A DNA stretch of 64,000 nucleotides from Inonotus obliquus (lineage: Eukaryota > Basidiomycota > Agaricomycetes > Hymenochaetales > Hymenochaetaceae), in the NCBI GenBank assembly GCA_032164295.1, contig JAJHTX010000007.1, positions 1 through 64,000 on the forward strand, given 5' to 3'. Each line of letters opens with the position of its first letter. Position 1 is the stretch's first letter. The notes beneath the pieces are model-generated. The model was not told the origin of the DNA, did no database searches, and saw only the letters and a program-made list of their open reading frames with translations. The position numbers and the translations under genes are program-made. Below are positions 13,925 through 26,379 of the stretch, in pieces.

Positions 13925-15642
13925 ATGAGACTCGATACTAGGTCATCCTCAGTCCCTTTGGACTCAATCTACGTTCCAGAATTTGTAAGTATGACTTATC
14001 TATACTTTTGCTCTCAAGTAGCAGTTGTTACTCTGGTATTATATGATCTCGGTAAGTAGGTGATCTTTGGTCAGTGAAAAGATGCTTACTCTTGCAATAG
14101 TTATCACGATGGATAAGGAGGTAATCTCATTGTTCAATACGGCTATCCTATGGAGACTCAAGAACACATCCGCAGATCAAGTTCTTCTGGGTACATCAAC
14201 CGACAGATTCTCCAAGTTGCGCATATACTAACTCTTTGCATATGAAGAGACTTACCAGGAGTCTGGTAGATGTCCTCTACTTTGCGGTGAGCTTGAATCC
14301 TACACCCTTCGATGACTGCAGCTTATACCAGATCCGTAGAACCGTTATATTGCAATTCTTGGTGCTATTTCGTACCTGCTCAGTAATATTTAGCCGATTT
14401 CTTGTACCGTATGGTAGGACTGATTCTCTTCGTTACAAAGATAATACCTTCGGTGTAACACTCTCCTTGTACGTATTCTTAATTGTACTCCCATCAAGAT
14501 GCTAATATTGGGATATTTAGGTGTGAGTAGCGGAGCTCAGTCGTGAACGTGCATAGATTCAACAAGTCCCAGGCAATTACTCTCTGTGGTTTAGTAACAT
14601 TGCCGGTAAGTTGTTCAGGGGTTCTCTTCAAGTTAGCCTCTGACCAATAGAAAGGTGGAATGAACATTGTTTTTATTGACTGTATGTGATAGGGGACTAC
14701 CCCCCCCCCCCCCCCCCCCGGACGCTAGACTCATGTGCCTTTTAGACATACTTTTGATCAGGGTCCTTGCACTATACTCTCAAGGTATGTGGCTAGAATA
14801 AAATTCGGCTTTGCTCATCGTTTTATAGATAAGAGACTTTCTATACTACTCAAATCATTGCTATTCCTGGAGGCGTGTACGGGACTTGGTGCGATTATAT
14901 ATACAAACGTTTTCCTACAGCATAGTATGCAAACTTTTCAAAATAATGATCAACATGCTTATAGCAATATAGGTGTAGTTGCGTTGCTTGCCAAGGATAT
15001 ATCGGTCTGCGCTGATAGCAACGAAATTCCATTGGCCTGGGCAATTATCGGATGGTGAGTAATTCATGAAATCAATACTATTCTTGAATGACGGCGGTTC
15101 TAGGGCGATTCCACTGTCATACGCGACAGTTCTCATTTCCCTTGCGATTTATAAAGCCGTGGAACATTGGAGATTGTCCTCCGGATTCGGGGGATCTGGA
15201 CTCATGAAGGTCATTATCGAGGACCACATTATGTACTTTGCACTGTGAGTCATGGATTTCAACTGGAAGAGCCCAGGTTAAAATGACGGTATTTAGAGTG
15301 ATTATCTGCTCAGTATTTAACGTCTTGAGCCCAATTATCGCGAACGATATCTTGTGTGCTGTCATGGTGGCTTTCGGAAATACGACCTTACTCTCTGTTC
15401 TGGGAAGTCGAATGCTTCTAAACCTTAAAGAGGCAGGAGAACGGAGTGAAATTGGAGGCAGCAACCATGGAAATCCATCCGAAACGATCAGTGACCTGGA
15501 TTTCTCTGCTTCTTTTAATAGTCAACGGTATGTCTGCCGCCTCCGCTTAGACTTTTTCTGGAACTGAAATCATCATGGCGATAGAATAACGAGCGGCACA
15601 TCAGATGGCGAGGAGTCATGGTCTCGTCAATATGCCCTTTAA
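13925..15642 (+). CDS. DUF6533-type seven-helix membrane protein, array copy 1
   Basis: Fifteen exons: 13925-14051, 14101-14120, 14176-14190, 14248-14286, 14340-14382, 14441-14468, 14521-14522, 14573-14605, 14655-14681, 14746-14784, 14829-14924, 14973-15054, 15104-15244, 15297-15527 and 15585-15642. They give 326 residues. The N-terminal signature LYDL-VITMDKE-IKFFW-RL...NRY matches DUF6533: a first helix, a YDxxxTxDKE-FW loop, a second helix ending in NRY. Five more hydrophobic helices follow, including IDYILLIRVLALYSQ and YKAVEHWRLSSG. Exon 7 is only 2 nt (GT); it completes Leu and starts the cysteine before helix 3. The intron at 14682-14745 contains an uninterrupted run of 20 C. Function is unknown; a plasma-membrane receptor-like role is an inference from topology. 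Confidence 0.85.
14521..14522 (+). other. 2-nt microexon, copy 1
   Basis: The exon is GT, between introns 14469-14520 (52 nt) and 14523-14572 (50 nt). Splicing TT+GT+GC gives Leu-Cys. Skipping it gives an in-frame TAG seven codons later. Confidence 0.75.
14700..14719. repeat. Poly-C run of 20 in an intron
   Basis: Twenty consecutive C bases lie inside the intron before exon 10 of array copy 1. The other four copies have no such run at the same intron. Confidence 0.9.
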
Positions 15643-15902
15643 ATGAGTGGCTAGATTGTTTGCACGAGTTCACCATTCACAGTAATTAGTCATACCGTAT
15701 ATGGCGTGGTTGGTGTGAAGCTAGTTGTAGAGTAATGGTCGAATACCTCTATAACGGAATTACAAGTATACGTAGGAATCTAACGACAGTAATCACGAAG
15801 TCACTCAGTTCATCATTCTCAAAAGAAGGAACGAATGAGATACTGCATTATGATGAAACAGTTCACCCTCACGCAGAACCATGAACCCCGTGGAATCGTC
15901 CT

Positions 15903-23784: not shown

Positions 23785-24686
23785 TATTAGCTGCACCTCC
23801 TCACTCATGTAGCTATGCCGGTCGATGCATTCGACCCAACTGGGAATCGCATTGTCTGATGCTGGCACAACACGTTACTGATCATTCTTTGAATGAGATC
23901 TTCTAATTTTGTATCCGATTACCTTGCAGTGAGGCATGTCCGTCCGATCGTATTTGCGTCCGCCCATGAAGGAATGCACCCAAATATCTCGGATCTTTCA
24001 ATTACTTCCCCGTCCCTAGTTGATGGGCGCTGGCTTTACGTTACGTTTAGAGTACATCACCAGCGATCTTTGATAACCCGCTTCATCAATTCTGCTGGCC
24101 ACTTGTGTTCTTTCCATACAAGGAGAGGTGGACGTTACACTGTGATGTCGTGTCACACTTTTTGCTAGTGATCGCTGACGTGGCACTACCACAGGCTCCG
24201 TTAAATCTTCCAAGTGAAGGCGCATCACTGGTAACCCTATCATCCGCTGGATCTGTGCCAACAATTGATCTCCGTCATATATCTTCTGTTTCACCATATC
24301 TCCGTCTTCTGCCCGAATAATAAATGCCTAAGCGACTCTCCATCACCATATTCAAAACGTGGCTCGCTAATCCAATATCATACCATATCCGATCAATCTT
24401 TTTGACCTATTCAAGTGCACGGGGATGAAAATCGACCGATGGCAGTGAATGTTGTACAGGACTACTCACCCTCGCGCTGTGCTCTCCGCGCACTTAGTCA
24501 CGATCTTCTCAAATCTCCAAGTGAAAGAACGACAAAAGCTGGTGATTGTATCGGACAGAAGGAAAACTAGGTACGGGTTCCATAATGATCAAAAGTTTCA
24601 TACAGTGACATCTTGGTATATAGGCATTAGGACCGTGGCCACCAATGCACAACGACCAACCTCTGGGCGGCTTGCTACCTCTTTGC
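23785..24686. other. Spacer between array copies 4 and 5
   Basis: No gene is supported; open frames on both strands are short and overlap one another. Confidence 0.4.
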
Positions 24687-26379
24687 ATGGACTTCAACAT
24701 GAACCTCATTGCTCGATCTGAAGATGAGGCTAACGACCCGAGCGTCGTGCTGATACTAATGCCAGTATGGAGACTCTCTTTATACTTTCAAATCACTACC
24801 TTCGCGGTTTTGGTCTACGATACTCGTAAGCGCTTTAGAATTCGGGATTCTATCCTATATTTACTCTGTGGCAGTCATAACTTTAGATAAGGAAGTATGT
24901 ATCCGGGTCATGCTTCTCTTTGTTCCTATATCTGACTCGTTGTTTTCAGGACAAGTACTTCTGGGTATGCACATTTACGCACACGCGTGAAATCGTCTCC
25001 TGAGCTCGAAATACGATAGAAAATACCGCAAAAGCCTGTTGATTACGTTTACTTCGCGGTACGCGATACATGACTCTTTCTGATAATCTGCTCATCGATC
25101 AAAAGAATCGCTACGGTGGGATCGTTGGAGCATTGGCTGTTATGCTTTGTAGGTATAATTCATACTGATAAGAACTAAACTAATGTGTCTTCAAGGGAAT
25201 GCCCTAAGAGCGACTGTATCTCGGTAAACCTTCTTGAGTATACGCTTGCTTTCCTCTCTGATCAAGGTCACCTAGGTGTAAGTGGTTGAGTCAAGAATGA
25301 TATGTTGGTATCGACGGTGCCACTTAGGTGTCATCACCGCTTGGGCATCAACAATGGCTGGTAAGGAGCCTCCTCAATGGTCCTATTGCAACTGCTTACT
25401 CTTCGTCAGAGTGCATAACCACTATCTCAATTGAATGCAAGTATAAGGCTCGCGGTCTCTGCATACTCGACTCACGCTTCCTCTAGATATCCTTGTAATT
25501 CGAGTACTGGCGTTGTATGCACAAGGTGCGTCCACTGTACTTTTGCCATAAGCCGATCTAATCCTTCCCATATAGACAGGAGGATGGCAATATTCCTTAA
25601 AACGCTGCTTGCTCTGACTTCAATCGCCAAAATCGTGCTGAAGGTCTACGTCAATATATTCCAACACAGTGCGTCATGTCCTGAGGCTCGTCCGGAATGC
25701 GAAATATCACTCTCACTTAGTCACAGCGGAAGACTTCGGTCCCATGGCGCTCTGTGGTATAAACACCATCCTTCCGTGGGAGACTGGAATGTGTGACTGG
25801 TAAGTGTAACGGGGCAATGCAATCCTACGATCAAAGACTCATTCTAGTGCAGGCTGATTCCTATGGCGTTTGAAGTGATTCTTATGGTTCTCGCACTTTA
25901 CAAAGCCTCGGAGTATTGGAAGTTATCCGCCGGGTTGAAGGGATTCGCCTTGGTCAAGGTTCTCTTATTAGATCAAGCTCTATACTTTGTGCTGTGAGTT
26001 TCTCGTATTCTTTCTCTGAGATTCAACATGCTGAGTGAATTTCCCAGCGTCATTGCTTCTTCGGTATTCGTCGTCTTGAACAACGAACTATACTTCTCAA
26101 ACATGTTCTTGTCGTTCCTCTTCAGTAATCTGGGAAGTCCGGCGTATCTTTCGCTCCTCGGCAACCGGATGATGTTCAACTTGAAAGAGGCAGGTGAACG
26201 AGGTGTCAACGAGGGTACAAGCTATAAAATACCATCAAGGATAGTAAGTGCGATGGACTTTGCTGTTCCAGTTAACGCCCAAAGGTAATATCTCGATTTT
26301 TTTTGCTAATTACATGGGTCTTATACGTTGTCATAGGATGGATGATCCGGACGAGGCTGGAAACAGAGGGCTTCCATAG
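24687..26379 (+). CDS. DUF6533-type membrane protein, array copy 5
   Basis: Fifteen exons: 24687-24825, 24875-24894, 24950-24964, 25020-25058, 25106-25148, 25196-25223, 25276-25277, 25328-25360, 25410-25436, 25487-25525, 25576-25668, 25721-25799, 25853-25993, 26048-26284 and 26337-26379. They give 325 residues. Motifs are LVYDT-LITLDKE-DKYFW-KIPQKPVDYVYFA-NRYGGIVG, RC-VITAWAST, ILVIRVLALYAQ, YKASEYWKLSAGLKG and LGNRMMFNLKEAGERGVNEG. The intron after exon 9 begins GCAAGT, a GC-AG intron where copies 1-4 have GT. Exon 12 is one codon shorter than in copies 1-4. An ATG at 24645 is also in frame; 24687 gives the same first-exon length as copy 2. Confidence 0.83.
25276..25277 (+). other. 2-nt microexon, copy 5
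   Basis: The exon is GT, between introns 25224-25275 (52 nt) and 25278-25327 (50 nt). CG+GT+GT gives Arg-Cys. Skipping it leads to a TGA eleven codons on. Confidence 0.74.

What the first reader, a model, noticed from the sequence alone, without database searches (positions are those of the whole stretch)
13925..26379. An exon of exactly 2 nt conserved in all five DUF6533 paralogues
In each tandem copy a 2-nt exon (GT, AT, TT, GT, GT at 14521, 17913, 20238, 22694 and 25276) lies between two introns of 49-52 nt, each with its own donor and acceptor. It supplies the last base of one codon and the T of an invariant cysteine codon before helix 3. Skipping it gives a stop within about a dozen codons in copies 1, 2, 4 and 5 and a frameshift in copy 3. 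Flanking exons are always 28 and 33 nt. Such tiny exons cannot be defined by exon recognition, so this must rely on intron definition or stepwise splicing.
Basis: partly seen in the sequence, partly recalled or inferred. Interest (0 to 1): 0.9.

Follow-up and report, generated by a model that had tools for sequence, protein, structure and literature searches.

The report
Two-letter exon in fungal receptor-like genes
A large family of membrane-protein genes in a wood-decay mushroom appears to need a coding piece only two DNA letters long, sitting between two ordinary introns, to spell one key cysteine; comparison of dozens of gene copies supports this strongly, but no RNA has yet been examined.

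Summary
In all five window copies a 2-nt exon lies at the stated place between canonical introns of 49-52 nt, flanked by 28- and 33-nt exons. The genome has roughly 88 related places (hand count). I read 50; 49 keep AG|NT|GT at the right spot, with T second in 49 of 49. With the junction residues masked, the same exon is found in 43 of 43.

It would keep the cysteine in only 22 of 43 genes, against 42 of 43 with the exon. The one gene without this cysteine also lacks its likely disulfide partner.

New here: seven other DUF6533 genes carry a 2-nt exon 2 nt further upstream. In a near relative of these, L012, the downstream intron is absent and the same two bases lie in a larger exon. One-nucleotide exons are published for plants and Fusarium, so this is a new variant of a known kind. 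No transcript evidence was available.

The parts
14521..14522 (+). copy 1, 2-nt exon GT
14469..14520 (+). copy 1, intron A (52 nt, GTACGT..ATTTAG)
14523..14572 (+). copy 1, intron B (50 nt, GTGAGT..TCCCAG)
14441..14468 (+). copy 1, upstream exon, 28 nt
14573..14605 (+). copy 1, downstream exon, 33 nt (Cys codon T|GC)
17913..17914 (+). copy 2, 2-nt exon AT
17862..17912 (+). copy 2, intron A (51 nt)
17915..17964 (+). copy 2, intron B (50 nt, GTCAGT..TTTAAG)
17834..17861 (+). copy 2, upstream exon, 28 nt
17965..17997 (+). copy 2, downstream exon, 33 nt
20238..20239 (+). copy 3, 2-nt exon TT
20186..20237 (+). copy 3, intron A (52 nt)
20240..20290 (+). copy 3, intron B (51 nt)
20158..20185 (+). copy 3, upstream exon, 28 nt
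20291..20323 (+). copy 3, downstream exon, 33 nt
22694..22695 (+). copy 4, 2-nt exon GT
22645..22693 (+). copy 4, intron A (49 nt)
22696..22744 (+). copy 4, intron B (49 nt)
22617..22644 (+). copy 4, upstream exon, 28 nt
22745..22777 (+). copy 4, downstream exon, 33 nt
25276..25277 (+). copy 5, 2-nt exon GT
25224..25275 (+). copy 5, intron A (52 nt)
25278..25327 (+). copy 5, intron B (50 nt)
25196..25223 (+). copy 5, upstream exon, 28 nt
25328..25360 (+). copy 5, downstream exon, 33 nt
13925..15528 (+). copy 1 DUF6533 gene as modelled (ATG 13925; 3' end not modelled)
   Evidence: PF20151 E 3.3e-13
17313..18851 (+). copy 2 DUF6533 gene as modelled (3' end approximate)
   Evidence: PF20151 E 6.4e-14
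19610..21227 (+). copy 3 DUF6533 gene as modelled (ends approximate)
   Evidence: PF20151 E 4.4e-13
22083..23701 (+). copy 4 DUF6533 gene as modelled (3' end approximate)
   Evidence: PF20151 E 1.8e-13
24693..26285 (+). copy 5 DUF6533 gene as modelled (ends approximate)
   Evidence: PF20151 E 7.1e-11

Best explanation
Each gene has a genuine, normally included 2-nt exon. Two short introns of about 50 nt are each recognised across the intron (intron definition) and removed one after the other, since spliceosomes could hardly assemble on both at once. When intron A goes first, the two bases become the end of the 28-nt exon and intron B is then cut at the donor just behind them; the reverse order works too. 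The result is one added wobble base plus the T of a Cys codon at the start of transmembrane helix 3. That Cys probably forms a disulfide with a Cys in the loop before helix 5; an mRNA without the two bases is frameshifted. Shown: anatomy, conservation, codon logic, the joint pattern of the two cysteines, and a relative with the two bases fused in the sister register. Inferred: inclusion in mRNA, order of splicing, disulfide.
For: (1) 43 of 48 distinct paralogues (the five window copies among them) give 28/2/33 by splice-aware alignment. Four of the other five, and two short pieces fetched later, also carry AG|NT|GT 49-55 nt before the 33-nt exon; L089, with no such exon found, does not. (2) Codon logic: base 1 is G31 A6 C3 T3, base 2 is T in 43 of 43. 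(3) Masked-junction alignment 43 of 43; public proteins as queries 43, 43, 42, 30 of 43. (4) The 28-nt exon evolves as coding sequence: pN/pS 0.53 in frame, 1.07 and 1.58 in the other frames, introns 0.99 and 0.90. (5) Cys at this site in 42 of 43; the exception, L038 (Phe), also lacks the loop Cys (Ala), which the other 42 have. (6) A sister register: 7 DUF6533 genes have a 2-nt exon 2 nt upstream, recovered in 7 of 7 with a query from L012, whose own Cys region is one uninterrupted exon. L012 groups with three of them, L010, L011 and L017 (100/99), then with L023 (94/80), and has GG joined to ATGC. (7) Donors of introns A and B have the highest mean intronic scores of nine introns in 42 genes, by a small margin.
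Against: No RNA. The paralogues share descent, so 43 of 43 is not 43 trials. A frame-rescuing 2-nt exon arises in about 10% of shuffled gaps; in the second register any AG|NN|GT arises in 11%. 20 of 43 genes have at least one single-intron, stop-free, in-frame alternative, though none is shared by more than 5. Disabling the acceptor costs little in some genes (minimum 0.6, median 10 score units). In L041 a donor shift of 2 nt would give an equivalent reading without the exon. Double skipping of 28+2 nt is in frame in 43 of 43, and 11 of the 60 public proteins that could be anchored lack exactly those ten residues. Two distant contiguous paralogues recover the exon in only 10 and 17 of 43. No relative with the bases fused was found in the window's own register.
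Confidence: 0.9

Rival explanations
1. The 28-nt and 2-nt exons are skipped together; the 43-nt exon joins the 33-nt exon in frame (30 nt lost), as a main or alternative isoform.
For: In frame and without a stop in 43 of 43 over the exons tested and in all five copies; 11 of 60 anchored public proteins lack exactly these ten residues with a Cys at the joint, by a mechanical position test.
Against: The Cys would survive in only 22 of 43 genes although 42 of 43 have its likely partner. The 28-nt exon shows purifying selection in its frame and conserved residues (Ser in 35, Leu in 34 and Leu in 35 of 43 at positions 3, 8, 10). Public proteins P0012, P0014, P0053, P0069 and P0074 contain the ten residues. 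I believe that the usual gene finders do not place 2-nt exons (recalled), so the skips may be artefacts. A minor skipped isoform is not excluded.
Confidence: 0.05
2. One intron of about 100 nt between the 28-nt and 33-nt exons, with a shifted donor or acceptor restoring the frame.
For: 20 of 43 genes have at least one such stop-free parse with any GT..AG of 40 nt or more.
Against: 23 of 43 have none; the most shared choice occurs in 5 of 43, so different solutions would be needed gene by gene. In the 11 genes where both exons stay nearly whole, the parses printed drop the Cys or insert residues beside it. Other introns of these genes run 42-67 nt.
Confidence: 0.02
3. Recursive (zero-length) splicing or a stwintron: the two bases are only a re-created donor and never reach the mRNA.
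For: In 31 of 43 genes the exon is GT, making AG|GT, the form of a ratchet site.
Against: 12 of 43 have AT, CT or TT, so no donor is re-created there. The product lacks the two bases and meets a stop within the next two exons in 40 of 43.
Confidence: 0.02
4. Pseudogene cluster or sequence error, with no expressed product.
For: A few copies look damaged (L057, L071, L089).
Against: pN/pS 0.25-0.53 over four exons; the same exon lengths in dozens of loci. The open frames (287-311 residues in the four copies modelled with the copy-4 query) fit, but the aligner cannot cross stops, so they are partly by construction.
Confidence: 0.01

Closest known systems
One-nucleotide exon of CYP621A P450 genes in Fusarium (PMC12940212; abstract, outline and passages seen)
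   Same: Ultra-short coding exon between two canonical introns in a fungus, needed to mend exon phase at a conserved motif; missed by nearly all gene models; an intronless relative used as length marker.
   Different: 1 nt, Ascomycota, orthologues across species, with SRA reads. Here 2 nt, Basidiomycota, about 50 paralogues read in one genome, two registers, no reads yet.
One-nucleotide exons of plant APC11 and VPS55 (PMC4674806: passages and discussion section; PMC8831610: passages)
   Same: Exon below 3 nt; intron definition plus stepwise splicing proposed for APC11; fused or intronless relatives known; pervasive misannotation.
   Different: Plants, 1 nt, verified by RNA; genes of one or few copies.
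Stwintrons of fungi (PMC5639578: one passage; others: search listing with abstracts)
   Same: Two introns very close together, removed one after another.
   Different: In a stwintron one intron splits a splice signal of the other and nothing coding lies between; here the two bases are read as coding. PMC5639578 mentions 3-nt exons in a Dactylellina gene.
Small exons in Phanerochaete P450 genes (PMC1184071, passages)
   Same: Basidiomycete genes dense in introns of about 50 nt with very small exons.
   Different: Shortest reported there is 6 bp.

Membership tests
DUF6533 (PF20151) | Hit above the curated cut-off of 24.1 bits | tested here: met
   5 of 5 spliced copies, 42.5-52.2 bits
Ultra-short (1-2 nt) exon | Two canonical introns with acceptor and donor directly beside the bases | tested here: met
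   5 of 5 window copies; 49 of 50 family loci
Ultra-short (1-2 nt) exon | Bases required for reading frame | tested here: met
   frameshift without them, with a stop in all five copies; stop within the next two exons in 40 of 43
Ultra-short (1-2 nt) exon | Relative in which the bases lie in a larger exon | tested here: inconclusive
   Met for the sister register only: L012, GG joined to ATGC. None found for the window's own register; L041 is ambiguous
Ultra-short (1-2 nt) exon | Bases present in mature mRNA | not testable with these tools
   no RNA data at hand
Recursive (ratchet) splice site | AG|GT at the junction | tested here: not met
   31 of 43 have GT, 12 of 43 do not; so not a feature of the family, though single copies have it
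Stwintron | Nothing coding between the two introns | tested here: not met
   removal of the two bases shifts the frame
Class A GPCR | Seven helices with Cys at start of helix 3 paired to Cys in the second outer loop | tested here: inconclusive
   AlphaFold2 model of relative P0012, pLDDT 82.7, C92 in helix 89-121 and C172 in strand 170-174; joint absence in L038; distance not measured
Class A GPCR | Sequence or significant fold match to the family | tested here: not met
   no 7TM Pfam hit in 5 of 5; Foldseek best E 1.1e-3, none at or below 0.001, TM 0.36-0.55 by query length in the 50 shown

The most novel reading that the evidence does not exclude
The 2-nt exon is an old and repeatedly reworked feature of the DUF6533 family. 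Three possible intron sites (P1, P2, P3) lie exactly 2 nt apart around the same Cys. The window's family uses P2+P3, seven other genes P1+P2, others P1 alone or none. Because P2 is shared, the ancestor may have had all three introns and thus two consecutive 2-nt exons, or the exon may move along the gene in steps of its own length. If so, this family is a natural series for how near-zero exons arise, slide and vanish.
Probability: 0.3. Interest if true: 0.85.

Novelty: new variant of a known kind. Interest (0 to 1): 0.68.

Why it matters
Exons of 1-2 nt sit at the physical limit of what splicing can define, and my searches found only a handful in print. Here one genome offers some fifty read copies with natural variation in the two bases, both flanking introns and the splice sites, plus sister genes with the exon in another register or absorbed into a neighbour. 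That makes stepwise intron definition directly testable by RNA-seq and minigenes, and lets the origin and loss of near-zero exons be traced. It would also explain why public gene models of this receptor-like family often go astray at this point: of 60 anchored proteins 11 lack exactly ten residues and 36 differ in other ways.

Tried and rejected
One search seemed to show L041 as a copy with the 28- and 2-nt exons fused, which I noted as proof. Closer reading showed an intact AG|AT|GT inside its 111-nt gap, so I withdrew it.

Tandem duplication as origin of the two introns: introns A and B of one gene are no more alike than random pairs (mean local score 12.0 against 12.1). Not supported, though old duplications would be erased.

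The skip counts (0 for each of seven queries) are uninformative: the maximum intron length of 150 nt lies below what that skip needs.

In one search the 13 proteins with a Cys at the expected place include P0036, which is a coincidence (one search shows the ten residues missing there), and several that run into what looks like retained intron. Sixty of 120 proteins had no anchor and were not classed.

Of the 30 distant DUF6533 loci held (of 68 matches), five (L002, L015, L016, L018, L030) could not be modelled well and were left out of the intron-state table and tree. The tree also left out the five family-1 genes that did not give the standard chain, and L094 and L095. The second register's queries were my own readings; one search repeats the test with queries from uninterrupted genes only (L012 query 7 of 7, L003 query 3 of 7, L028 query 4 of 7). 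The states (P1 only, or none) of the 14 genes L004, L006-L009, L013, L014, L020-L022, L024-L026 and L029 rest on a query that I made up ('typ', best for 14 of 14) and are weaker.

Searches for a 2-nt exon in print. One search listed 25 of 614 papers; searches used phrases such as 2-nt exon, two-nucleotide exon and exon of 2 bp and listed two, one and six papers. By title and abstract none reports a fungal 2-nt exon. One search gave a sago palm genome paper with 'exon of 2 bp', which I did not open. Supplements could not be read.
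Full report
What is there. The window is the first 64 kb of contig C7 of a 36-Mb genome in 30 contigs. The closest public proteins are from Sanghuangporus, then Fomitiporia and Phellopilus, so by inference this is a hymenochaetoid wood-decay mushroom. Five tandem genes on the + strand each encode a protein of about 300 residues with a DUF6533 match (42.5-52.2 bits, cut-off 24.1). The genes are chopped into small exons: E1, 20, 15, 39, 43, 28, 2, 33, 27, 39 nt and four longer ones, with introns of 42-64 nt, all GT..AG but one GC..AG in copy 5 (the 42-nt one, at the end of copy 2, is doubtful).

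The 2-nt exon. The aligner carries incomplete codons across introns, so it can place exons of any length; it returned the same exon for 15 of 15 copy-query pairs. The exon gives the third base of one codon and the T of a Cys codon (TGT or TGC). Leaving it out yields a stop 7, 1, 34, 1 and 11 codons past the junction in copies 1 to 5; keeping intron A gives a stop in all five, keeping intron B in four of five and a frameshift in copy 2.

A family, not five genes. Two protein searches of the genome found roughly 88 places with a relative, 67 of them on C7 (hand count over; the second list was cut, and some places may be fragments). Forty-three of 48 gave 28/2/33 by the aligner. Of the other five, L041, L057, L071 and L091 carry AG|NT|GT 51-55 nt before the 33-nt exon, as do L094 and L095 at 52 and 49 nt; in L089 no 33-nt exon was found. 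The first base of the exon is G in 31, A in 6, C in 3 and T in 3 of 43; the second is T in 43 of 43 and in the six others. That is how a third codon position and a fixed first position behave.

Controls. With the four residues at the junction masked, the aligner finds the same exon in 43 of 43; disabling its acceptor lowers the score by 0.6 to 32.5 units (median 10), so in a few genes the alternatives come close. Public proteins from other genera, whose models owe nothing to mine, recover it in 43 (P0014), 43 (P0053), 42 (P0074) and 30 (P0012) of 43; distant paralogues with an uninterrupted Cys region in 10 and 17, and a public model that skips the segment in 8. Shuffled gaps contain a frame-rescuing 2-nt exon in about 10% of trials. 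A single intron with other sites is possible without a stop in 20 of 43 genes, copies 1, 4 and 5 among them with donors flagged weak, but no choice recurs in more than 5.

Since 28 + 2 = 30, losing both exons keeps the frame, and no gene shows a stop under it (0 of 43 over the exons tested). Public gene models do this at times: of 120 proteins listed, 60 could be anchored; 11 lack exactly these ten residues with a Cys at the joint, 13 have a Cys ten residues on (five clean through the next exon: P0012, P0014, P0053, P0069, P0074; one, P0036, a coincidence), and 36 differ otherwise. Three facts speak against skipping as the normal product. The 28-nt exon evolves as coding sequence in its frame (pN/pS 0.53, against 1.07 and 1.58 in the other frames and 0.99 and 0.90 in introns A and B). 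Under skipping the Cys would survive in 22 of 43 genes, under inclusion in 42 of 43. And the residue read through the 2-nt exon behaves as part of a pair: 42 of 43 genes have both this Cys and one in the loop before helix 5, while L038 has neither (Phe and Ala). One joint loss is a single event, so this last point is suggestive, not statistical.

What the Cys does. An AlphaFold2 model of Fomitiporia relative P0012 (22 sequences, mean pLDDT 82.7) has seven helices, the last in two pieces, and a hairpin; Cys 92 lies near the start of the third helix and Cys 172 in the hairpin. Foldseek's best matches are mostly class A receptors with some class C, but weak (best E 1.1e-3; TM 0.36-0.55 in the 50 shown), and no receptor family hits by sequence. 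A GPCR-like disulfide is therefore likely but not measured. The DUF6533 protein SNB1 of Coprinopsis is predicted to have seven helices; its authors weigh a receptor role but note that it does not fit the GPCR classes (PMC10949477, passages).

A second register. Of the 30 distant DUF6533 loci held (of 68 matches), 25 could be modelled around the same Cys. Seven (L001, L005, L010, L011, L017, L023, L027) also have a 2-nt exon, but made of the first two bases of the codon before the Cys, that is 2 nt upstream. With L012, whose Cys region is one uninterrupted exon, as query, all seven are found again; with L003 and L028, 3 and 4 of 7; any AG|NN|GT arises in 11% of shuffled gaps. Eleven genes have only the upstream intron (P1), seven none; 14 of these 18 rest on a made-up query. 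In the tree the window's family is one clade (100/99). L012 groups with L010, L011 and L017 (100/99), then with L023 (94/80), with L001 and L005 outside (85/85); L027 falls elsewhere, beside L028 (86/47). In L012 the second intron is absent and GG runs straight into ATGC. The simplest reading is loss of that intron with the two bases kept in the coding sequence, which is what one expects if they were in the mRNA. The tree rests on 97 columns and has long branches, so deep order is open.

How it probably works. Introns A and B are close to 50 nt (medians 51 and 50), with the two highest mean donor scores of the nine introns compared in 42 genes (3.36 and 3.16, the next 3.09); the donor of B never has G before it, as the codon demands. 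Short introns fit intron definition, with the two cuts made in turn, as proposed for the 1-nt exon of Arabidopsis APC11 (PMC4674806, discussion). In the 31 genes with GT the first cut creates GTGT, so the machinery must choose the second GT; the first would give the frameshifted product. Order and fidelity are untested.

What is known. One-nucleotide exons are in print for plants (PMC4674806, PMC8831610) and, since February 2026, for Fusarium CYP621A with reads (PMC12940212). I found no 2-nt fungal exon in the searches, which cover open-licence papers only and a part of the list. The kind is known; the size, the number of copies in one genome, the two registers and the basidiomycete setting are new as far as these searches go.

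Noticed in passing
genome contig C7, about 107-330 kb and 559-741 kb: Very large expansion of this DUF6533 family on one contig: 67 of roughly 88 places by hand count, in two main blocks on both strands.
   Followed up: partly
14700-14719: A run of 20 C inside the intron between the 27- and 39-nt exons of copy 1, unusual for this region; may be a sequencing or stability hot spot.
   Followed up: no
25437-25486: One intron of copy 5 starts with GC instead of GT (GCAAGT..CTCTAG).
   Followed up: no
L001, L005, L010, L011, L017, L023, L027: 2-nt exon in a register 2 nt upstream of the one in the window, in other DUF6533 genes.
   Followed up: yes
public proteins P0001-P0120: Public gene models of this family often go astray at the 2-nt exon: ten residues missing, apparent retained intron, or lost segments.
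   Followed up: partly
contig C7 (2,398,419 bases): P0002, P0007 and others of Sanghuangporus sanghuang lie on a contig of 2,397,971 bases, nearly the length of C7, a hint to the species.
   Followed up: no
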